This document shows positions 21,258 to 34,336 of a stretch of DNA of 64,000 bases, piece by piece. The first letter of the stretch is position 1. Every line of letters begins with the position of its first letter. The stretch comes from Deltaproteobacteria bacterium. GTDB taxonomy: Bacteria > Myxococcota_A > UBA796 > UBA2385. The position numbers were made by a program, and so were the translations under genes. The notes beneath the pieces were generated by a model. That model worked only from the letters and a program-made list of their open reading frames with translations, was not told the origin of the DNA and did no database searches. The DNA lies in contig JAGYJW010000004.1 of assembly GCA_018401435.1 (NCBI GenBank), forward strand, positions 124,001 to 188,000. The letters are read 5' to 3'.

Positions 21258-22640
21258 GCGCGCGCCCACCCTGGGCCGCCAAGGGGAGCGGCCCGGGGGC
21301 TGCTTGCCCGCGGCGAGGCGCTGCGCCGCCGTGGCCAGGCTGCCGCTGCGCACCCGCATGTCGTCGGGCACCCGCGAGACCCGGGCGCCCAGGGCCGCGA
21401 GCTTGTCGTCCAGGCGCTCGTAGCCGCGATCGAGGTGGTAGAGCCGGAGGATCTCGGTCTGGCCCTGGGCGGCCAGGCCCGCGAGCACCAAGGAGGCGCT
21501 GGCCCGCAGGTCGGTGGCCATGACGGTGGCGCCCTTGAGGCCCGCGCTGCCATCAATGAAGGCGCAGTGGCCGTCGATGTGGATGTTGGCGCCCAGCCGC
21601 AGCAGCTCGGCGACATGCATGAAGCGGTTCTCGAAGATGGTCTCGCAGATCTCGCTCTTGCCGCCCGCGACGGTCATCAGGGCCATCCACTGGGCCTGCA
21701 TATCGGTGGGGAAGCCGGGGTGGGGCTGGGTCTCGATGTCCACCGGCAGGAGCGGGCCGCTGCGCCGCACCCGCACGCGGTCCTCGCCCACATCCACGGT
21801 GCAACCCGCCGCCCGCAAGGCGATCAGCAGGGGGCTGAGGTCGTCGGGGCGCAGGCGGGTGACGGTGACGTCGCCGCCGGTGATGGCCGCAGCGACCAGG
21901 TAGGTGCCGGCCTCGATGCGGTCGGGCAGGATGCTGTAGGGCTGCCGGGCGGGGCGCAGGGCCGGCACGCCGTCGACTTCGAGGGTGGCGGTGCCCTCGC
22001 CGGTGATGCGGGCGCCCATGGCACGCAAGAAGCGCGCGAGATCGACGATCTCGGGTTCGCGGGCGGCGTTGTGGATGACGCTGGTGCCATCTGCGAGAAC
22101 GGCCGCCATCAGGATGTTTTCGGTGCCGGTGACCGTGGGCACATCCAGGTGGATCTCGGCCCCGCGCAGGTGGTCGACCGTCCCGTGCACATAGCCCTGG
22201 GCGAGCTCGAAGCGGCAGCCGAGGGCCTCGAGGCCCTTGAGGTGCTGGTCGATGGGGCGCACGCCAATGGCGCAGCCGCCGGGCAAGGACACCCGCGCCG
22301 CGCCGCAGCGTGCCAACAGCGGGCCCAGGGCGAGCACGCTGGCCCGCATCTTGCGAACGAGGTCGTAGGGGGCCTCGTTGAAGGCGACCCGGGTGGTGTC
22401 CAGGCGCACCCGCTGGCCGAAGCTCTGGCCGTCGGGTTCGGGCACCAGCGAGGGGCAACCCAGGCGCCCCAGCAGGGACAGGGTGGTCGAGACGTCCACC
22501 AGGTCGGGGATGTTGTCCAGCTCGTGCTCACCCGGGGCCAGCAGGGTGGAGATGAGGATGGGCAGCGCGGCGTTCTTTGCGCCGCTGGCCGGGACTTCGC
22601 CGCGCAGGGCGATGCCGCCTTCGATGACGAGCTTTTCCAT
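21258..22640 (-). CDS. murA: UDP-N-acetylglucosamine 1-carboxyvinyltransferase (N-terminal part of a MurA-DnaG open frame)
   Basis: MurA transfers enolpyruvate from PEP to UDP-GlcNAc, the first committed step of peptidoglycan synthesis. The N-terminus [20 protein letters not shown], with KNAALPIL after it, is canonical. The catalytic Cys sits in [20 protein letters not shown]. The C-terminal lobe has [16 protein letters not shown] and the end [21 protein letters not shown] normal MurA would stop soon after this. Here about 35 further residues (Arg/Ala/Gly/Pro-rich) run without stop into DnaG. The ATG at 22640 is secure. The enzyme acts in the cytoplasm and is the target of fosfomycin; the sensitive Cys is present. 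Confidence 0.93.
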
Positions 22641-22872
22641 GGAGGACTCGGGTGCGGAGGGGAGGGTTCGGGGAGGGAGAGGATGCGGGCTCGAGGGGGA
22701 TTCGAGCGCGACGCAGAGACCCCGAGGCGGGTGCGGTTGGCCCTCCGGGCGAGGAGCCGGCCGTCTTTGCATCGTAATGGACTGGGTCCCACCCCGGCAA
22801 TACGCAAGCTCCATGCCAGGTCGCGGCGCGGTGGAGTGCCCGGCTACAGGCCGGTCACGATACGATGCTGTC

Positions 22873-25800
22873 GTGAGCCCGCACGCCCCCGACCCCCAGG
22901 CCGCTGCCCCCACGGAAGCCCCGCGTGGCGGGGCGCGTGCATCGTTCGAAAAGATGCGCGGGATGTCGATTCCCGGCGCGATGTTGGAGGGCGCGGACCT
23001 GCGGGGCTTCGACCTGCGCCGTGCCGATCTGCAGGGGGCGCGCCTGTCGGGGGCGCAGCTGGATGGGGCCATCGCCCACGGCGCATGCCTGCGCGGCGCG
23101 GTGTTGACGGGCGCCTCCGCGGTCGGACTCCTGGGACGGGACCTGGACCTGGAGCGGGCGCACCTCTCGGGTGCGGTGCTTCACAGTGCCGTCCTGTGTT
23201 TCGCCGTACTGCTGGAGGCGGACCTCGCGGGCGCCGACCTGTCGGGCGCCGACCTGTCGGGTGCGGATCTTCGGGGTGCGGACCTTCGGGGTGCGGATCT
23301 TCGAGGTGCGGAGCTGTCGGGGGCCGACCTGGCCGGCGCCCGCCTGGAGGGGGCTCGGGTCGAGGGCCTGCGCGGACAGCGGGTCCGCCTGCACCGGGTC
23401 TCTGATCCCGATGGTGCGGCGCTGCGCGCCTTGATCGAGGCCGGCGGCTACACGGGCTTGGTCGCCCCTCTGGTCGGGGCGGGGGTCGCCTCGGGCCGGA
23501 GCGGGTCAGGTGGGCGCGCGCCTGCTCCGGGCCTCGCGCGACAGCCTGTCGGGTCCCTCTCCCCTGTGGGCCCCGGCTGCGGGCAGCCGGCCTGCGCCTG
23601 CGGCTTCGCATCGCCGGGGGCGCCGCCGAGGCCACACCCGCCAGGAGCGGCGGGCCGCCGAGTCCAGGAGCGACAGGCCCGGTGGCGCCGCATCCGCGCC
23701 CAGCGGCAGGCCGATCCGCCAGCGTCGCGCCAGGACCAGGCGGTGAGCGGAACACCGCAGCCGGCGTGCGGAGCGTGCGGCCCGGCGCCTGCGCCACCAG
23801 CCCAGCTTCCGGGTGGGGCCCAGCGCAGCCCTTGCTGGTGGACCTGCCCCGGCGGGTCCTGCGCTTGCCGCGCGCCCTCGGGTGCCGGCGCCGCCGCCGC
23901 CCGGCTGCAGCTGCTGGCCCATCGCCGCGCCAGATACTCCTCGCGCGCACGTGAGATGGGATTGCTGGCGCATCTTCGCGGTGCGGCCAGACGCATCCTC
24001 TCCCGTGCCCGGGCCGTCCAGCCCGGGCCGTCGACGACCGCCCGGGCCGCGGCCGAGGCCGCCCACCAGGCGCGGCTGGAGGCCAGAAGAGGCCCGCCCG
24101 CGCCGCCGGGCGGGCGGGAGGACCGACGCCCAGCGGGCGGCGGCCAGGACGCCCAGGCTCGGCTTGCCGCCGAAGCCCAGTTGGCGGCCCGCCCAGCAGG
24201 CCGATGCCCGCGCGCAGGCCTTGGGCGACGCGGCAGGAGCGGGCCCGCCGCGCCTTACGCCGCCGTCAGGCCGATCTCGCCGATCTTGCGGCGGCGGCCA
24301 GCGCCTTGCAAAGCCCGCCAGGCCCTCGCCGACAGCGCGAGCTGGAGGCGCTGGACCGGCAGCAGGCGGGCGGCCGCGGTCAACGCCAGGCCCCGCCGGG
24401 CCCCTGCGCCCGAAGGGCTCAAAGGCCGCGTCTGGCGCTGCCCGGTCCCGGGGCCTTGCCCCAGGGCCCCAGGGTGGACCTCTGGCGCAGATCTGCGGCG
24501 CAGGCGGCTGGGGGCCCTGAACTGGCCCGGAGCCACGTCTGCGCGAGGCTCGGCTGTCCGGGCGCGCGGCTGGAGGCGCGAATCTGCGAGGAAGCGAGAT
24601 AGAGAGAAGGCGCGGATTTCAGGTGCGCGCCTGGCGGGCATTCGGACAGGGTGGCTGCGGGGCGGGGGTCCGCCTGTCGGGCGCGCGGCTGCGGCGGGCC
24701 AGCCTGGTGGAGCGCCCAGCTGTCAGGTGCCCGCCCTGGTGGACGCGGATCTGCGGGATGCGAGGATCTGCGCGGAGCCGAGCCTCTCGGCGCGGACCTC
24801 ACCGGCGTGGACCTGCGGCGGTGCCGCCTGACCGGGGCCAACCTGCGGGGGGCTCGCCTGAGCGCCGCCCGCATGTCGGATCTCGACCTGCGCGGGCTGT
24901 TCCTGGAAGACGCCACCTTGGACCAGGCCGACCTCGCGGGTTGCCAGTGGGAGGGCGCTGGCGTGCGCGGGGCCGACCTCGCCAGAGGCCCTGGGGCTGT
25001 CGGGTCGGGAGCGCGGGCCCTGGCCGAGCGGGGCGCGCGCACCGGCGAGCCGGGGCCTCGAAGAGAGCTGTTGGGGGGCCTGCGCCTTCCAGCTTCGCGC
25101 GGCCCTGGTCATCCTCGGCCTGGGGCTCGGGGCCTGGCTGGGGGCGCGCTTTCTGGCGGGTCAAGAAGACCCGGCGGTGCTGGCTGAACAAGCCGCCGCC
25201 CTGCGCAGCGAGGCCCCGCTGGACGCCAGCGCCGCCTATGCCAGCCTTGCCGACTTGAGCACCCGGGTGGACGAGCGCGTCGGCTACCTGGTCGAGGCCG
25301 CGGGCCTGGCCGACCTGGGCGGGGACGCCGAGCGCGCCTCGGCCCTGATGGACGAGGCGCTGGTGGTGGCGGGCAGCAGCCCGGGCATCTCGGCGGATGT
25401 GCGCGTGCGCAAGGGGCTCCCGCCTGGGCGGGGGGAGTGGGTGGCGGCCCCGCGAGACGGTGCTGCCGCTGCACTGGGCCTCGAAGGCCACCCGGCCGAG
25501 ACCCGCGCCCGCGCCGTGGTGGTCTGGCAAGGGCGCGCTGCCCTGGACCTGCCCCCGCAAGCCGACGAGGGGGACCCCGTGGCGGCCCTGGTGGGCTCCT
25601 TGGCCGAGCTGCCCGAAGCCGCCGCCGACCTCTACCTCGCTGTGGCCGAGCTTCGCAGCGGCCGTGGCGGGGACCCGCAGCCCTGGGCCAGCTGGACGCG
25701 GCCCGCCGCCCTGGACCTGCCCCTTCGGCCAGGGCTGGCGCCTGCAGGAGAGCCGGGCCCGGGTGCTGGACCGGGCGGGAGGCTGGAGGCGGCCGCCGCC

Positions 25801-28219
25801 CTACTATGCGCTGCTGGCCGAGGCTCCCGACCTCAGCACCCCCCGGGCGGCGCTGGCCCGGCTGGCGCTGGCCGACATTCACCAACGGCGAGGCGCCTGG
25901 ACGAGGCCGCCGCGCTGGTATTGCCCCTGGCCGAGACCGCCGGGGACGCGGGGGTGCGCGGCCGGGCCTTGCTGCTGACCGGGCGCCTGGCCGAACAGGG
26001 CGAGGATGCCACGGCGGCCCTGGCGGCCTACCAGCAGGTGCTGACCCTGGACGGCATCGACGCCGACACCCGCGACGAGGCGCGCATCTCGCCAGCGCGG
26101 AATTGCTGATGGAGGGGGCGCGGGGCCGACGCAGAGGCGGCGATCGCCGGCCTGCCGCCCGATGCTGCGGCCCTGGTGGTGGCCCACGCGCGCCTGGGTG
26201 AGGCCCGGGGCCTGATGGACGACGGCCAGGCCGAAGCCGCCCTCGCCGTCTACGATGCCCTGCTCGAAAATGAAGCATTGATCGATGATCTGCGGCGTGG
26301 CGCCCTCTCTGGGCGGGCCGAGGCCCTGGCCTACCTGGGCGAGCTTTCCGAGGCCACCGAGCTGTGGCGGGCCCTGCTCGCTGAGAACCCGGACGCCGCG
26401 GAGCGTGCCGAGATCGAGCTGCGCCTGGCCTATGGGCTGCTGCAGGGGGGAGAGCCCGCCCAGGGCGATCGGGCCTTCCAGAGCCTCGCCGCCGCATCCG
26501 ACCCGGATGTGCGCTTCCGGGGCCTGTTGGGCCAGGCCGAGGTGGCCTTGAGCGCGGGCGAGCGTTCGCGTGCAGGCCTCGCAGGCAGGTGGCTGACCGG
26601 GCGCCCGACGCCGCCTTCCAGGTGCAGGCCCTGCAAGAGCTGGCGCTGCTATCGGCCGAGGAGGAGCGCCCCGAGGCCGCCCTGGAGGCCTGGCGCCGGC
26701 TGTTGGGCGTGGCGCCGCCGGGCCACCCCTCCATCGCCAACGCGCGCCTGGCGCTGCTGGGGCGCTGTGGAGCCTGGGGCCCACGCCTGGACGAGGCCCT
26801 GGGCATCTGTGAGCAGGCCGTCGCCACCACGACCGGGCTGGATCACGCCGCGGGCCCGGGCAGGCTGCGCCGGAAGGCTGCGAGCGGGCCCGTCACCTGG
26901 AGGAGGCCGCGGGAAGCCAGGTCAGGTTGGCCCGCAGTGCCGGTCCTGCCAGCCGATCGCAGGCGACGCCTGGCTGAGGCCGCCCGCTGCACCTCGCCCT
27001 GGACCAGCCCCGCCGCCGCCGCGCGCCTGGCGCGAGGCTGCCTCCCTTGAGTCAGGCGGTGCCCCTGCCTGCCGCTGCACAGGCCTGGGTGGAGGCCCTG
27101 GAGCAGCTTGGCGCGCCCGCAGCCCTGGCGGCAGCGCGGGCCGGGCGGGACGCCCTGGTGGGCCGCCCCCGCCCTGGCCAGCCCCTGCTGTTGCAGTCGG
27201 CCCCAGGCCCGGTCCCAGGGCCGCCCCGACAGGCCGCCCGCATGCTGGAGCGCGCCTTGTCCTTGCCCCTGTCCACCGCCGAGCGCGCCGGCGCGCTGGT
27301 GGAGCTGGGTGACACCTGGTTGGAGGCCGGGCAGATCGCCGCGGCCCAAGCCCGCTTCGCCGAGGTCGCCGATCTGGAGGGGGTGGAGGATCCCACCCGC
27401 TTCGCCGCCGCCATGGGGCGGGCCGAGGCCCTGCACGCCGCCAGGGGGATCTGCCCGGCGCCTTGGATGCGCTCTCCCAGCTCGATCCCCCCGATCCCAG
27501 CAGCCGCCGCTGGTGGCTGGAGACCCGGGCGGGCCTGCAGGTGGAGGCGGGCGATGCCGAAGCCGCGCTGGTCACCTGGATGGCCTTAGTGGAGGCCGCC
27601 GCCCGATGTCTCCGGGGGCCCGCACCGCGGCCTGCGCGGGGCGGCCGACGCCGAGCTGACCCTGGACCGGCCCCAGGCAGCGCTGGCCCTCTACGAGCAG
27701 GCCGCCGCCAGCGCGACGGACGGTCCGGCTTCGGGCTGGGCGCGCCTGGGCCTCGCGGCGGCCCTGGCGGAGCTGGGGGGGGGACCGGGCCCGGAGCCAG
27801 GCCCCATTTGTGCGGTCCCACGCCGATCCGGAGGTCCAGCTCCAGGCGGCCCTGGAGAGCGCGCGCATTTCCGCTGGGAATGAAGACTGGGACTCCGTTG
27901 TCGCTGTGTTGGAAGGTGTGGATGCCGCACCGCTGGGCCCCGGCTGGGACGCCTCGCTGGTGGAGGTGCGGGCGGCAGCCCAGGTGGGCCAGGGTGAGCC
28001 GGACGCCGCGGCCGAGGCCTGGGCGGCCCTGGCCGCCGCTGGCCCGAGAGCGAAGAGGCCCTGCTGCCGGCCTGGCTGGGGCTGGCCGATCCCTGGCCCT
28101 GGCCCGCGGTAGTCTGCAAGAGGCCCCGCCAGTGGGCCGACCGCGCCGTGCTGCTGGCCCGGGACCCCGGCTACCTGGACCGGGCGCGCGCCCTGGTGGC
28201 CCGGCTGGACGGGGGATGA
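22873..28219 (+). pseudogene. Giant pentapeptide-repeat / coiled-coil / membrane / TPR protein with many frameshifts
   Basis: Repaired, this would be about 1780 residues. From a GTG at 22873, residues 30-185 are pentapeptide repeats ([20 protein letters not shown]). From about 23500 the coding signal hops between frames. It passes through an Ala/Arg/Gln coiled coil (pieces [20 protein letters not shown] at 24234 and [13 protein letters not shown]), then returns to pentapeptide repeats ([20 protein letters not shown] near 24790). A single membrane helix (LRAALVILGLGLGAWLGARF, about 25096) precedes a long TPR-like region to 28219. Examples there are DEAAALVLPLAETAGDAGVR and AEAALAVYDALLENEALIDD. 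At least a dozen frame switches occur, yet each segment stays coding-like. The stop overlaps the next ATG (ATGA at 28216). Either recent decay or local assembly errors could explain it. The family is not recognised as a whole. Its 5' end is divergent from murA, with a 232-base gap that shows nothing clear. Confidence 0.65.
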
Positions 28220-29747
28220 GGCCGGCGCCGGGGTCGGACCGCTGGCCGCCCTCCCTCTTCGGCGCCTGCCGCCCTGCCTGTGAAGATCTCGACCAGGTGC
28301 CCATCCTCACCGAGGCCGCCCCAGACCCGGTCGCTTGGCAGGCCGAGATCGCGGGCACGCTATCGGACTTCCTGGCCTGGAGCGGCGAGGGGACCTGCTT
28401 GTCGGCGGTGTCGGTGGGGCTGCCCTCCGCAATCCAGGGCGACCCCCGCTCTCCGAGGGCCTTCGACCGCTGGCAGCGGCGCATCCACCTCGCGCCGGAT
28501 CTCGACCTGCAGGCCGTGGCCCCGGTGCTGCAGCACGAGCTCTGCCACGCCTGGGACGCCTCTCGCGGCTTCGTCTCCGATGAGCACCCTGAGCTTTTTC
28601 CCGCGGAGCAGCTGCCCGCGGCCTGCATACCGCCACCCATCCGGCAGGGACCGGCGGCGCGAGAGGTCTTCGCCTTCTTGTGCGGGGTGGGCCCGGTGGA
28701 CCCGGCCCTGGTGCGCAGCCTGGATGCCGGCGGCTGCGATGCGGGCTTGACCCCGGGCTGGCGCTTCGTGCTCGACCAGGTCTACCCCGAGGCTCCGGCT
28801 GGGGAGCCCGCGGCCCTGGGCGCCGCCCTGCCGGCCGCCATCCGGCAGGTGCCCATCGCTGATCCGCCCGCCCAGCGCATCTACGACGTCGCCTTCGTGG
28901 GGGATGGGCTCTGGATCCTCAGCCTGGAGCACCCGCCGCCCACCTGGGAGCTCAACCGCCTGGACCTGCTCACGGGCGAATGGACCACCCACCGGCCCCT
29001 GCCAGCGACCGATCCGCTGCCCGGCGCATTCCTGGTGGCGGGCCCGGAGGAGGGGCGCCTGGTGGCCCGCTGGGGGGAGGTCTGGACCGCCTTTCGCCTG
29101 CCGCCGGATGGCGGCGAAGCCAGCCCGGTGGTCAGCGTCGGTGCGCCGCCCAGCTTTGAATCCGGCGCCTTGTGGTGGCAGGGCCGGCTGTGGCAGCTCG
29201 TTGGAGATGGGCTGCTGGAGCACGATCCCATCGACGGAAGCAGCGGCGTCCACCCCTTTCCCGAGGGGCTCTCGGGCCTGTCGAACCGCAGCCTGCACCC
29301 CCGCTCTGGCGGCTTGGGCTTTGTGGGCACGGTGGGCGGCCACGCGGTGCAAGGCTTCACGGACGGGGGCGGGGCCTGGTCTCATGCAGCCGCCCCCACC
29401 CGCCGACCGCTAGTCCGGAGCTGGCCGATGGGCGCCTGGTGGGGGGAGGGGATCTGCGGGGCCTCGGCTTGCCCGCGCTGGCCTTGCGCGGCTGGACCCG
29501 GCCCGAGGCCGAGCTGCTTGCGGTGATCGACCCCGAGGCTGGCGCCTATTGGCTGGGCGGCTGCTTCGACCCGGCCCTGGTCCCTTCGGATGCGGGGGAT
29601 CTGGGCGCCTGGGTCAGCTCGGATGGCGTGATCTGGTTGCTGGGCGAAGGGCAGGAGGGGCTCACCCTGCTGGCCATCACGCCGGGCGGGGAGTCCGATC
29701 GCGATCGCAGGGCAGATCGGCTCAATGTCGGCGGTGGGCGTCCGTAG
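28216..29747 (+). CDS. Putative HExxH-containing protein with beta-propeller-like C-terminus, frameshifted
   Basis: This gene is coupled to the preceding one by ATGA. Repaired length is about 510 residues. Near residue 115 is VAPVLQHELCHAWDASRG, an HExxH zinc-peptidase-like motif preceded by hydrophobic residues. A downstream EVFAFLCG could supply a further acidic residue. From about residue 210 the protein becomes strand-rich with short repeated blades (VAFVGDGLWILSLEHPPP, FESGALWWQGRLWQLVGDGL, GGLGFVGTVGGHAVQGF), suggesting a propeller. The frame changes near 29400, where HAAAPT continues as PELADGRLVGGGDLRGLGL in another frame. No signal peptide is visible. Peptidase activity is a possibility, not a conclusion; a third zinc ligand is not identified. 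Confidence 0.6.
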
Positions 29748-29797: not shown

Positions 29798-30751
29798 ATG
29801 ACGGATTTTCACGCCGCACACACGCGCGCACCGCAGATCTTCTGCGAGCCGAACCCGACCGATGAGGTCACTGTCGCGGACCGCGTCGAGCGCCTGCAGA
29901 TCCCGATGGATCGCCGGCGGCCCACCTTGACGCTGCTGTCGGGCATCGAGGCGGGGCGGCAGTTTGCGTTGGCCCAGGGGCGCACCATCCTGGGGCGCGG
30001 CTCGGAGGCCGACGTGGTCCTCGACGAGGACGGCGTGTCGCGGCAGCATTGCGCCATCGACGTGTACAGCGGGGGACAGGCCTTCATCACGGATCTGCGG
30101 AGCACGAATGGCACCGGCGTGGACGGCCAGGTGGTGGGCGACGCCGCAATCCCCTTGACCGATGGCGCCCTGCTGGCCCTTGGGGGCTCCTTGACCCTCA
30201 AATTCGCCCTGCGCCACGAGGTGGAGGAGAAGGTCCAGCACAGCCTCTACAACGCGGCGGTGCGCGACGGCCTGACCGGCCTCTACAACAAGCGCTACCT
30301 GCAGGAGCGCATGGAGCAGGAATTCGCCTGGGCCCTTCGGAATGGGCGCCCACTGTCCATTCTCGTCGTTGACCTCGACTTCTTCAAGCGGGTGAACGAC
30401 CAGCACGGCCACCCGGCCGGGGACGAGGTGCTGCGGGTTGCGGCGGGCCGCATGCAGGAGGGCCTGCGGAGGGAGGACGTGCTCGCCCGCTTTGGCGGCG
30501 AAGAATTCGTCATCCTCATGCGGGAGACGCCCGCGCAGCGGGGTTGGGAGGTGGGGCAGCGGGTGGCCGAGGCCGTCCGCAGGGCGCCCGTGCACTTCGG
30601 GGCCCTGCGGATCCCCATCACGGCCTCCATGGGGCTGGCCAGCAGCGAGGAGCCGCGGGTGCTCCGGGTGGCGGATCTCTTCGCCCGGGCCGATCGGCGG
30701 CTGTACAAGGCCAAGTCCAATGGACGGAACCAGGTGGTCGCCCGGGACTGA
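29798..30751 (+). CDS. FHA-GGDEF diguanylate cyclase
   Basis: This is a 317-residue soluble protein. Residues 40-140 are an FHA phosphothreonine-binding domain: GRTILGRGSEADVVL, then VSRQHCAI and DLRSTNGTGVDG. Residues 155-315 are a GGDEF domain beginning DGLTGLYNKRYL. The active-site loop is ARFGGEEFVIL (GGEEF, competent), and RRED five residues upstream is a product-inhibition I-site (RxxD). The enzyme should make c-di-GMP from two GTP, with recruitment or control through a phosphorylated partner. TCAGGAG lies upstream of ATG 29798. The window also holds a PilZ receptor at 3.4-5.3 kb, a possible downstream reader. The gene ends six bases from an opposing gene. Confidence 0.93.
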   Translation: MTDFHAAHTRAPQIFCEPNPTDEVTVADRVERLQIPMDRRRPTLTLLSGIEAGRQFALAQGRTILGRGSEADVVLDEDGVSRQHCAIDVYSGGQAFITDLRSTNGTGVDGQVVGDAAIPLTDGALLALGGSLTLKFALRHEVEEKVQHSLYNAAVRDGLTGLYNKRYLQERMEQEFAWALRNGRPLSILVVDLDFFKRVNDQHGHPAGDEVLRVAAGRMQEGLRREDVLARFGGEEFVILMRETPAQRGWEVGQRVAEAVRRAPVHFGALRIPITASMGLASSEEPRVLRVADLFARADRRLYKAKSNGRNQVVARD

Positions 30752-31852: not shown

Positions 31853-34268
31853 ATGGCAAAGCCCCACCGCCTCCTCTTCCTCCTGCTGGCCGCCTGCTCG
31901 GGCGATGCGGCGAAGACCGAGGCCCCGCCGGCCCCCACCGAGGCCGCCCCCGAGGTCCCCGCCGAAGCCGCTGTTGTGGCCAAGGCCGGCTCCGGGCCCT
32001 CGCTGCTGCTGGTGACCATGGACACCACGCGGGCCGACCGCATCGGCGCCTATGGCTATGCCGACGCCCACACGCCCCATATCGACAAGGTGGCCGCAGA
32101 GGGTGTGCGCTTCTCGCGGGCCTATGCCACGGTGCCCCTGACCACGCCCTCGCACGCCTCGATGCTGACGGGGCTCTACCCCACGCGACACGGTGTCCAC
32201 AACAACGGTGACGCCGTGCTTCCCGACGAGCTGACCACGCTGGCCGAGCTGCTGGTGGGTCGGGGTTACCACACCGCCGGCTCCGTCTCGGCCTTTGTGA
32301 CCACCCGGGTCTGGAACCTGGACCAGGGCTTTGACGCCTACTTTGACACGGTGCAAACCCATGAGGGCGGCCGGGCCGACAGCCGGTGGGGCCGCGAGCG
32401 CAGCGCCGCCGAGGTGGTGGACGACCTCGCGGGTTGGCTGAAGGAGAAGCCCGCTGGGGCGCCCTTCTTCACCTGGGCCCACATGTATGACCCCCACGAC
32501 CCCTATGCGCCCCCCAAGGAGTGGGCCGAGAAGATGCCCGGGCGGCCCTATGACGGCGAGATCGCCTATATGGACGAGCAGATCGGCCGGCTGATCGCCG
32601 CCGCCGAGGCCGCGGCCGGCCCCGAGGGCGTGGCCATCGTGCTGGTGGCCGACCATGGCGAGGCCTTCAACAATGAACATGGCGAGCAGAGCCATGGCAT
32701 GTACACCTTCGACCCCACCATGCGCATCCCCTTCATCGTGCGGCCTCCCAAGCCCCTGGCCCAGGGCCGCGAGGTGTCCGAGATCACCGTCAGCAACGTC
32801 GATGTGACCCCGACGGCGCTGGGCCTGCTGGGCATGCCATCGCCCGAGGATCTGGACGGCGCGGACCTCAGCGTCTTCTCGCGCGGCGAGACCCGCGACC
32901 GCGAGCCCGTCTTCTTGGAGGCCGAGACCCCCTGGAACCGCTTCGGTTTCCACCCCGAGTGGACGGCGGCCCAGGGCCCCTGGAAGCTCATGGCCACCCC
33001 CAACCCGCGCCTCTTCGACGTGGACGCCGACCCCAAGGAGCTGACCAACCGCTACGCCGAACAGGGCGAGGTCGCGGGCAAGCTCAAGGCCTTCGTGGAC
33101 GGGGTGCAGGCCCGCCGGGTGAATTCCGAGACCATGTCCGCCAGCCCCGAGATGATCGAGCAGCTGGCCGCCTTGGGCTATGTCGCCGGCACCGACGCCG
33201 GGCCCGCCGATGTGGCCGGGCTGCCCGACGCCAAGGACCAGCAGCAGGTCATCAACCGCATCGAGGCCGCGCGCCGGCTCACCCGCCAGCCCAACAAGAC
33301 CAAGGAGGCCGAGGCCGCCATGCGCGGCATCCTGCGCGACTTCCCGATGATGGGCGAGATGCGCATGAGCCTCTCCCGGGTGCTGCAGCGCCAGGGCAAG
33401 TTCGCCCAGGCCGAGAAGGTGCTCAAGGAGGGCGTCGAGCTGCAGCCCGCCAGCACGCTGATGCGCTCACACCTCGCCGGCGTCATCGCCCGGCAGGGCC
33501 GCTTGCAAGAGGCCTATGACCTGGTGCGCACCATCTACGAGCAGGTGCCCGGGGATGACCTCTCGCGCATCTCCATGCTGCGCTACCTCACCGATATGAA
33601 CCGGGTGGACGAGGCCCTGGCCCTGGGCCAGCAGTGGCTGGCCACCGAGCCCGAGAACCGTGGCTTGCAGTCCATGGTCGGCATCTTGCTGGTGCACAAG
33701 CGCGATCTGCGGGGCGCCGAGCCCTTGTTGCAGGCCTCCTTGCTGGACGGCCAACCCCGCGAGCAGGTGCACCGGGCCCTGGGCATGATCGCCCTGGCCA
33801 AGGGAGACACCGAGGGCCTGATCGGCCACCTGCAGGCCGAGAGCGCTGATTTCCCGTCCAATCTGGGCGTGCGGATGGAGCTGGGCAACACCTTCATGAC
33901 CGCGCGTCGCTGGGACGAGGCCGCCGCCGAATATGCCGCCATCGCCGAGCAGAACCCCAAGGACTTCAACGCGCGCCGGGCCTGGGCCCAGGCGGTCTTC
34001 AACAGCGGCGACTACGAGCTGGCCGCCAAGCTGCTGGCCCCAGCGCTGGCGGGCGCCCCCGACAACCCCGAGGTGCTGCTGCTGCACGCCAACCTCTTGG
34101 ACAAGCAGGGCAAGACCGAGGAGGCCAAGGCCGCAGCCGAGGAGGCCAAGGCCCTGTGGGCTGCCGGCCGGGCGGCGGAGGAGGCCGAGCCCCCTGCCGC
34201 TGTTCACCGAGATCGAGGAGGACCCCGAGCTTCGGGACCTCGACCTGCCCGGCATCACCAACCCCTGA
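31853..34268 (+). CDS. Sulfatase-superfamily lipoprotein with C-terminal TPR domain, frameshift near end
   Basis: The product is a lipoprotein (MAKPHRLLFLLLAACSGD, lipobox LAAC) of about 804 residues if repaired. Residues 45-430 are an alkaline-phosphatase/sulfatase fold: LLLVTMDTTRADRIGAYGY gives the first metal Asp pair, VPLTTPSHASMLTGLYPTRH the nucleophile loop, and IVLVADHGEAFNNEHGEQSH the second metal site. The loop lacks the Cys/Ser of the formylglycine signature (CxPxR); a Thr is in place, as in phosphotransferase relatives. Residues 460-790 are TPR repeats. Near 34195 a C5 run shifts the frame: AEEAEP should continue PLPLFTEIEEDPELRDLDL and stop at 34268, which restores a sensible acidic end. 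Substrate unknown. A related shorter gene lies at 41936. Confidence 0.85.
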
Positions 34269-34276
34269 TCGGCGGG

Positions 34277-34336
34277 GCTCCCCTTCGGGGGAGCGCCCCA
34301 ATTGGAGAGGCCCGCCCCCGAAGGGGAGCGGGCCTC
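34277..34336. terminator. Back-to-back terminator hairpins between convergent genes
   Basis: Two hairpins lie between the sulfatase end (34268) and the opposing lipoprotein end (34381). The first is GCTCCCC-TTCG-GGGGAGC (34277-34294), with a stable UUCG loop in the + transcript. The second (34307-34336) pairs GAGGCCCGC plus CCCC with GGGG plus GCGGGCCTC, and shows its UUCG loop in the minus transcript. Each faces the gene it would end. No T-run follows either. Confidence 0.7.

What the first reader, a model, noticed from the sequence alone, without database searches (positions are those of the whole stretch)
22873..29747. HExxH protein coupled to a TPR membrane protein: candidate two-gene system
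The ATGA overlap at 28216 links the solenoid protein to a product with VLQHELCHAWD and propeller-like blades. Together they could form a periplasmic peptidase-scaffold unit. The combination is not a known system to me.
Basis: inference. Interest (0 to 1): 0.55.

Follow-up and report, generated by a model that had tools for sequence, protein, structure and literature searches.

The report
Peptidase lipoprotein beside unrelated giant scaffold
A probable zinc-peptidase lipoprotein happens to sit next to a giant pentapeptide/TPR membrane protein in this uncultured bacterium; relatives carry the two genes apart, so they look like two separate, undescribed families and not a two-gene system.

Summary
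Both genes are real; the "system" is not supported. The window copy of the solenoid gene (22873-28219) is full of frameshifts: a second contig of the same assembly, C11, differs by 69 indels, 67 not multiples of three, clustered in patches, which looks like assembly error. Intact relatives show gene 1 to be a giant protein: pentapeptide block, variable linker, second pentapeptide block, one TM, about 1,000 aa of TPRs; it is in 35 of 71 genomes of the class and divergently beside murA in 9 of 10 loci holding that side. Gene 2 (28216-29747) is a lipoprotein of an order-restricted, uncatalogued family: HELCHAxD, an invariant Glu 34-39 residues later (likely third zinc ligand), then a six-bladed propeller; 26 of 71 genomes. 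Eighteen genomes have both genes, 17.8 expected from family membership alone; only the window genome has them on one contig. In relatives the FHA-GGDEF gene follows gene 1 directly, with no peptidase gene between. Most likely: a lipid-anchored zinc peptidase placed by chance downstream of an unrelated envelope scaffold. The scaffold family is the more interesting part.

The parts
22873..28219 (+). Gene 1, giant pentapeptide - linker - pentapeptide - TM - TPR protein; frame broken many times in this assembly
22975..23370 (+). First pentapeptide-repeat block
   Evidence: Pfam PF00805 7.9e-35 for 22873-23520; 15-base repeats
23400..24650 (+). Linker region, frame scrambled; coiled coil of variable length in relatives
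24660..24990 (+). Second pentapeptide-repeat block
   Evidence: Pfam PF00805 5.5e-13 for 24651-25058
25099..25161 (+). Predicted single TM segment
   Evidence: read from the translation; aligned position in relatives
25180..28219 (+). TPR solenoid, predicted periplasmic
   Evidence: C11 copy: TPR_19 27.7 bits, cut-off 25; orthologues 39-47% identical
28216..28219 (+). ATGA overlap of gene 1 stop and gene 2 start
   Evidence: same in C11
28216..29747 (+). Gene 2, putative zinc-peptidase lipoprotein; frame changes near 29,400
28267..28269 (+). Predicted lipid-anchored Cys (mature N-terminus)
   Evidence: Invariant Cys in 17 of 17 rows (counting rows that reach it)
28534..28548 (+). HELCH, predicted zinc-binding and catalytic motif
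   Evidence: Invariant in the 17 rows; 14 of 15 rows have the Glu in the wider set
28663..28665 (+). Invariant Glu, candidate third zinc ligand
   Evidence: helix 132-145 of the relative's model
28840..29747 (+). Propeller region
21276..22643 (-). murA, divergent neighbour of gene 1
   Evidence: TIGR01072 532 bits, cut-off 393
29798..30751 (+). FHA-GGDEF gene, direct neighbour of gene 1 in five relatives' loci

Best explanation
Two independent genes that became neighbours in this lineage. Gene 2 makes a secreted lipoprotein: after cleavage before the conserved Cys it is held by lipid; an N-terminal zincin-like domain binds zinc through the two His of HELCH and the Glu about 36 residues later, with the Glu of HELCH as general base; the C-terminal six-bladed propeller most likely positions a substrate or partner. 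It acts as a peptidase in the periplasm or at the surface. Gene 1 makes an inner-membrane scaffold: a pentapeptide - coiled coil - pentapeptide rod in the cytoplasm, one TM, and a TPR solenoid in the periplasm; its lasting place beside murA suggests a role in cell-wall growth or division. The peptidase gene came to lie between gene 1 and the GGDEF gene in the window's lineage, and its product need not touch that of gene 1. Shown: families, conserved residues, propeller, gene order. Inferred: zinc, peptidase activity, lipid anchor, topology, roles.
For: Peptidase and gene 1 are unlinked elsewhere: 0 of 15 and 0 of 31 stretches; 18 genomes with both, 17.8 expected within families, one contig only in G000. 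FHA-GGDEF follows gene 1 directly in 5 loci without a peptidase gene. Peptidase genes elsewhere mostly have a divergent upstream neighbour (8 of 11), and the nearest relatives adjoin a pyruvate phosphate dikinase gene instead. Invariant HELCHA-D and Glu; model with HELCH and Glu in separate helices; propeller Z up to 17.9. murA beside gene 1 in 9 of 10 loci.
Against: The overlap exists in both contigs of the window genome and implies translational coupling there. No genome of the same genus was available. Over the whole class the joint count exceeds the unstratified expectation of 12.8 (P 0.010). Zinc-site geometry and activity were not tested; the fold of the N-terminal domain was not tested by the fold searches. 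One paralogue has HGLCH.
Confidence: 0.72

Rival explanations
1. A lineage-specific functional pair: the peptidase lipoprotein docks on the periplasmic TPR domain of gene 1, which presents it to envelope substrates; the overlap fixes their ratio.
For: ATGA overlap in both contigs; predicted periplasmic side for both.
Against: No linkage in any other genome examined; no co-occurrence beyond family membership.
Confidence: 0.13
2. Gene 2 is a binding lipoprotein, not an enzyme: the propeller is the working part and the zinc site is structural or inactive.
For: One paralogue, L033, has HGLCH, without the catalytic Glu; no known peptidase family passes its cut-off; the propeller is the larger domain.
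Against: HExxH with its Glu and the downstream Glu are kept in 14 of 15 rows and 17 of 17 rows while the rest of the protein is only about 25-30% identical, as expected for catalysis.
Confidence: 0.2
3. The window copy is a decaying pseudogene and C11 an intact second copy.
For: Two contigs carry the region and differ.
Against: Differences are mostly frame-changing indels in patches with long identical runs between (716 bases against at most 362 in 2,000 random placements). C11 breaks frame itself further on. The region is 77% G+C. Decay should spread substitutions more evenly.
Confidence: 0.05

Closest known systems
Zincins with HExxH and a downstream Glu, such as Pro-Pro endopeptidases (PPEP) and the catalytic domain of lethal factor
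   Same: HExxH in an active-site helix preceded by short strands; a conserved Glu some 35-40 residues later; often a Tyr shortly before it; secreted (PPEP passages of PMC12828418; model; spacing)
   Different: No Pfam model of such a family was listed for 16 members at E up to 0.1 other than the weak ones named; PDB profile match E 1.3 only; fused to a propeller and a lipoprotein signal; the Tyr is mostly 9 residues before the Glu, 7 in PPEP-1 by recall
DUF6782, putative metallopeptidase family (PF20573)
   Same: Local match around HExxH, E 2.6e-4
   Different: 20.8 bits against a cut-off of 27; 0 of 39 genomes over the cut-off
Pentapeptide-repeat proteins (PF00805; HetL, Qnr, MfpA and others)
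   Same: Both blocks of gene 1 match PF00805 far above cut-off
   Different: Fused in one chain to a long linker, a TM and a TPR solenoid; below the NCBIfam cut-offs of HetL, Qnr and MfpA, above that of Alr5209 only
HubP/FimV-type single-TM polar scaffolds (recalled, no call)
   Same: Large single-TM scaffold joining a TPR domain to the other side of the membrane
   Different: By recall HubP/FimV has cytoplasmic TPR and periplasmic LysM; here the predicted orientation is reversed and Pfam listed no LysM in three relatives

Membership tests
Conserved two-gene system (gene 1 with gene 2) | The two genes adjacent in other genomes | tested here: not met
   0 of 15 gene-1 loci, 0 of 31 peptidase stretches (21 distinct loci); only the window genome has both on one contig among 18 with both
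Conserved two-gene system (gene 1 with gene 2) | Co-occurrence beyond shared ancestry | tested here: not met
   18 observed, 17.8 expected within families; 12.8 expected without families
Zincin metallopeptidase | HExxH conserved | tested here: met
   17 of 17 rows; 14 of 15 rows in the wider set, one HGLCH
Zincin metallopeptidase | Third protein zinc ligand | tested here: inconclusive
   Invariant Glu 34-39 residues on in 17 of 17 rows, in its own helix; distance not measurable, no coordinates
Zincin metallopeptidase | Zinc content and peptide cleavage | not testable with these tools
   Needs purified protein
Lethal-factor/PPEP-type peptidases | Match to a curated model of the family | tested here: not met
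   Not among the families listed for 16 members at E up to 0.1
Lethal-factor/PPEP-type peptidases | Same fold of the catalytic domain | tested here: inconclusive
   The propeller filled the fold-search lists
DUF6782 (PF20573) | Score over the curated cut-off | tested here: not met
   20.8 against 27 bits; 0 of 39 genomes
Bacterial lipoprotein | Signal peptide with lipobox-like Cys | tested here: met
   Hydrophobic N-terminus and Cys in the clean members; Cys invariant; processing itself not tested; Pfam LPAM_1 in only 1 of 16 members
Six-bladed beta-propeller | Fold | tested here: met
   Relative's model residues 193-483: Z 17.9, rmsd 3.6, 251 aligned. The window's own shortened model covers part of it, best Z 13.5
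Pentapeptide-repeat protein (gene 1) | PF00805 above cut-off | tested here: met
   118.4 and 48.7 bits against 20.2
TPR protein (gene 1) | A TPR model above cut-off | tested here: met
   TPR_19 27.7 bits in C11, cut-off 25; 61.0 and 76.7 in two relatives

The most novel reading that the evidence does not exclude
Gene 1 founds an undescribed, class-specific family of giant trans-envelope scaffolds: two cytoplasmic pentapeptide beta-helices held apart by a coiled coil whose length varies from about 200 to 2,300 aa between species, one TM, and a periplasmic TPR solenoid, kept beside murA to organise peptidoglycan synthesis. In the window species a lipid-anchored zinc peptidase has been recruited to it by operon capture.
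Probability: 0.2. Interest if true: 0.65.

Novelty: new variant of a known kind. Interest (0 to 1): 0.36.

Why it matters
It removes a doubtful two-gene system and puts two apparently undescribed families in its place. One is an order-restricted family of HExxH-propeller lipoproteins, often several per genome. The other is a giant pentapeptide-coil-pentapeptide-TM-TPR protein with a stable place beside murA, a candidate organiser of the cell envelope in a group known here only from metagenome assemblies. It also warns that G+C-rich genes of this window carry assembly frameshifts.

Tried and rejected
Considered and rejected: (a) a conserved two-gene system; (b) DUF6782 membership; (c) a pseudogene; (d) an anti-phage system (no PADLOC match at E up to 0.01 for three proteins); (e) a plasmid-borne family (one member as tblastn query, no match in 72,556 plasmid records).

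Led nowhere: PDB sequence profiles; fold searches with whole proteins, in which the propeller filled the list and no metallopeptidase was shown, which says nothing about the N-terminal domain; the first genome-contig scan with the C11 protein, which found nothing. Literature: the searches listed nothing that I took to describe either family. I saw the listings only, plus passages of PMC12828418 (found) and PMC4158809.

Limits: the comparison genomes are draft assemblies of varying completeness, so absences are uncertain; 71 genomes of the class were held; the length of gene 1's linker in this species is unknown; in G030 and G038 the script picked a hydrophobic stretch inside the linker, so topology there may differ. 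A first attempt to place the GGDEF gene used a wrong frame and was repeated correctly. The orphan hit near the dikinase gene in the window genome (best E 0.003) was taken as chance.

Full report
1. The observation. The ATGA at 28216-28219, the HELCHAWD motif (28534-28557), a TM segment and TPR-like helices are in the sequence. Gene 1, however, is not an open frame in the window: codon phase switches repeatedly from about 23,400 to 28,050. The window is part of contig C139 of genome G000, and a second contig of that genome, C11 (3,869 bp), holds the same region. C11 matches window 25490-29356 with 52 mismatches and 69 indels, of which 67 are not multiples of three and 63 fall in gene 1. The 121 differences are clustered: 68% of bases lie in clean runs of over 100 bases, against at most 36% in 2,000 random placements, and the longest clean run is 716, against at most 362. 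C11 keeps 610 codons of gene 1 open but breaks frame further on. This looks like error-prone consensus in 77% G+C sequence and not like decay of a gene. In gene 2 a lost base near 28230 turns a normal lipoprotein signal (C11: MRPAPGVGPLAALLFGAC) into MRPAPGSDRWPPSLFGAC, and the end of the gene runs in another frame to a stop at 29747.

2. Gene 2, the family. The C11 protein has relatives in 13 of 58 related genomes, own genome included; with a profile of 15 members, 26 of 71 genomes of the class match. In a 235-genome sample of the phylum 22 match, all in the window's order. The named records with relatives are mostly uncultured Deltaproteobacteria, proteobacteria and Myxococcota assemblies. 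The family is often multi-copy: neighbouring copies in G009 contig C33 and in G007 contig C140, and a second copy in the window genome on contig C172. Clean members begin with a hydrophobic signal and a Cys. Over 17 rows (16 genes) Cys1, Cys5, F35, C44, HELCHA-D, E133, F135, A136 and C139 are invariant. The Glu lies 34-39 residues after the second His in 17 of 17 rows. In the other, 15-row alignment one paralogue (L033) has HGLCH.

3. Gene 2, the structure. A relative (L069, 483 aa) was predicted with mean pLDDT 84.2 and pTM 0.84. HELCH (98-102) lies in helix 92-108, after two short strands, and the Glu (138) in helix 132-145 (residue numbers). Residues 193-483 form a propeller like six-bladed ones (best Z 17.9, rmsd 3.6, 251 aligned). 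The window's own, shortened protein gave a weaker model (pLDDT 75.8, pTM 0.58) with the same plan. The propeller filled the fold-search lists, so the fold of the catalytic domain was not tested. No coordinates could be read, so the zinc site rests on conservation and not on distances.

4. Gene 2, known families. No Pfam model passed its cut-off: DUF6782 reached 20.8 bits against 27 and was over the cut-off in 0 of 39 genomes. Over 16 members Pfam gave only weak, scattered matches and NCBIfam one unrelated weak match. The only metallopeptidase in the PDB profile search was the active-site region of lethal factor at E 1.3, which is not significant. The arrangement resembles Pro-Pro endopeptidases, which have HExxH in an active-site helix and a zinc-coordinating Glu (passages of PMC12828418). 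So gene 2 most probably works like such zincins, but it is not filed as a member.

5. Gene 1. The TPR part has relatives of 39-47% identity in families f1 and f6, in open frames. Long relatives have 3,249 (G002), 2,046 (G026), 1,567 (G023) and at least 1,855 (G001, cut by the contig end) residues. The plan is pentapeptide block, variable linker, pentapeptide block, TM, about 1,000 aa of TPRs; G001 has a further pentapeptide block. The two blocks are about 200 residues apart in G023 and about 1,800 in G002, where the linker is rich in A, E and R; in G050 of family f2 they are about 2,300 apart. Not every homologue has the blocks: the N-terminal tail of G020's is short. In 17 of 21 members the 15 residues before the chosen hydrophobic segment hold more K/R than the 15 after it, which suggests a cytoplasmic pentapeptide part and periplasmic TPRs; two are equal, and in G030 and G038 the script chose another stretch. 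With a profile of nine members, 35 of 71 genomes of the class match at E up to 1e-30; in the 235-genome phylum sample 25 match, all in this class.

6. Neighbourhoods. murA lies divergently beside gene 1 in 9 of the 10 gene-1 loci that hold that side (L048, L050, L052, L053, L056, L081, L082, L083, L088; not L059). The window has murA and dnaG in the same place. The FHA-GGDEF gene that follows gene 2 in the window lies directly after gene 1 in L048, L049, L050, L051 and L057 and one ORF later in L053, that is in 6 of the 11 loci of the first set with at least 900 bases held downstream. It was not found in the eight loci of the second set. A sulfatase-like gene of the window recurs in five of the first set. 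So gene 2 lies between two genes that are direct neighbours in relatives.

7. Co-occurrence. No peptidase-family hit lies in 15 gene-1 loci, and no gene-1 hit in 31 peptidase stretches, which are 21 distinct loci (repeats judged from the contig lengths). By genome 26 have the peptidase, 35 gene 1 and 18 both, own genome included. Expectation without families is 12.8 (P 0.010), but expectation within families sums to 17.8. Both on one contig: the window genome only. Peptidase genes elsewhere have an oppositely directed upstream neighbour in 8 of the 11 loci where one could be called, of 12 given. The close relatives in G008, G002 and G005 adjoin a pyruvate phosphate dikinase gene. In the window genome that gene is on contig C57, and the stretch around it shows only weak hits (best E 0.003). 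The peptidase gene therefore seems to change place.

8. Verdict. The parts are real, and both families are undescribed in the libraries and papers searched, but the pair is not a system on this evidence. Most likely, gene 2 is a lipid-anchored zinc peptidase whose propeller holds substrate or partner, and gene 1 an envelope scaffold linked to cell-wall growth; the second is inferred from position and domains alone.

Noticed in passing
window 22873-29400; L004 (contig C11): Patches of indels against a second contig of the same assembly: G+C-rich genes of this window carry assembly frameshifts.
   Followed up: yes
window 22873-28219; L050, L052, L053, L056, L081: Class-specific giant pentapeptide - coiled coil - pentapeptide - TM - TPR protein kept beside murA.
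   Followed up: partly
L033:1117-2526 (-): A peptidase paralogue with HGLCH in place of HELCH, possibly an inactive member.
   Followed up: no
G009:C33:37213-40017; L029:2507-5079: Neighbouring copies of the peptidase gene.
   Followed up: no
L089:4589-6046 (+), window genome contig C172: Second copy of the peptidase family in the window genome, with HELCHLWD and the same downstream ESFA motif.
   Followed up: partly
L021:5567-8245 (-), L025, L023: In three relatives the peptidase gene lies divergently beside a pyruvate phosphate dikinase gene.
   Followed up: partly
L082, L088 (gene-1 homologues of G030 and G038): The strongest hydrophobic stretch lies in the linker, so a second TM is possible.
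   Followed up: no
L073: Record titled Bifidobacterium breve carries a member of this family at a contig end; probably a mislabelled metagenome bin.
   Followed up: no
window 31853-34300 (+): Sulfatase-like protein with a repeat-rich C-terminus, read; related genes lie near gene 1 in five relatives' loci, so the conserved block is longer than murA and gene 1.
   Followed up: no
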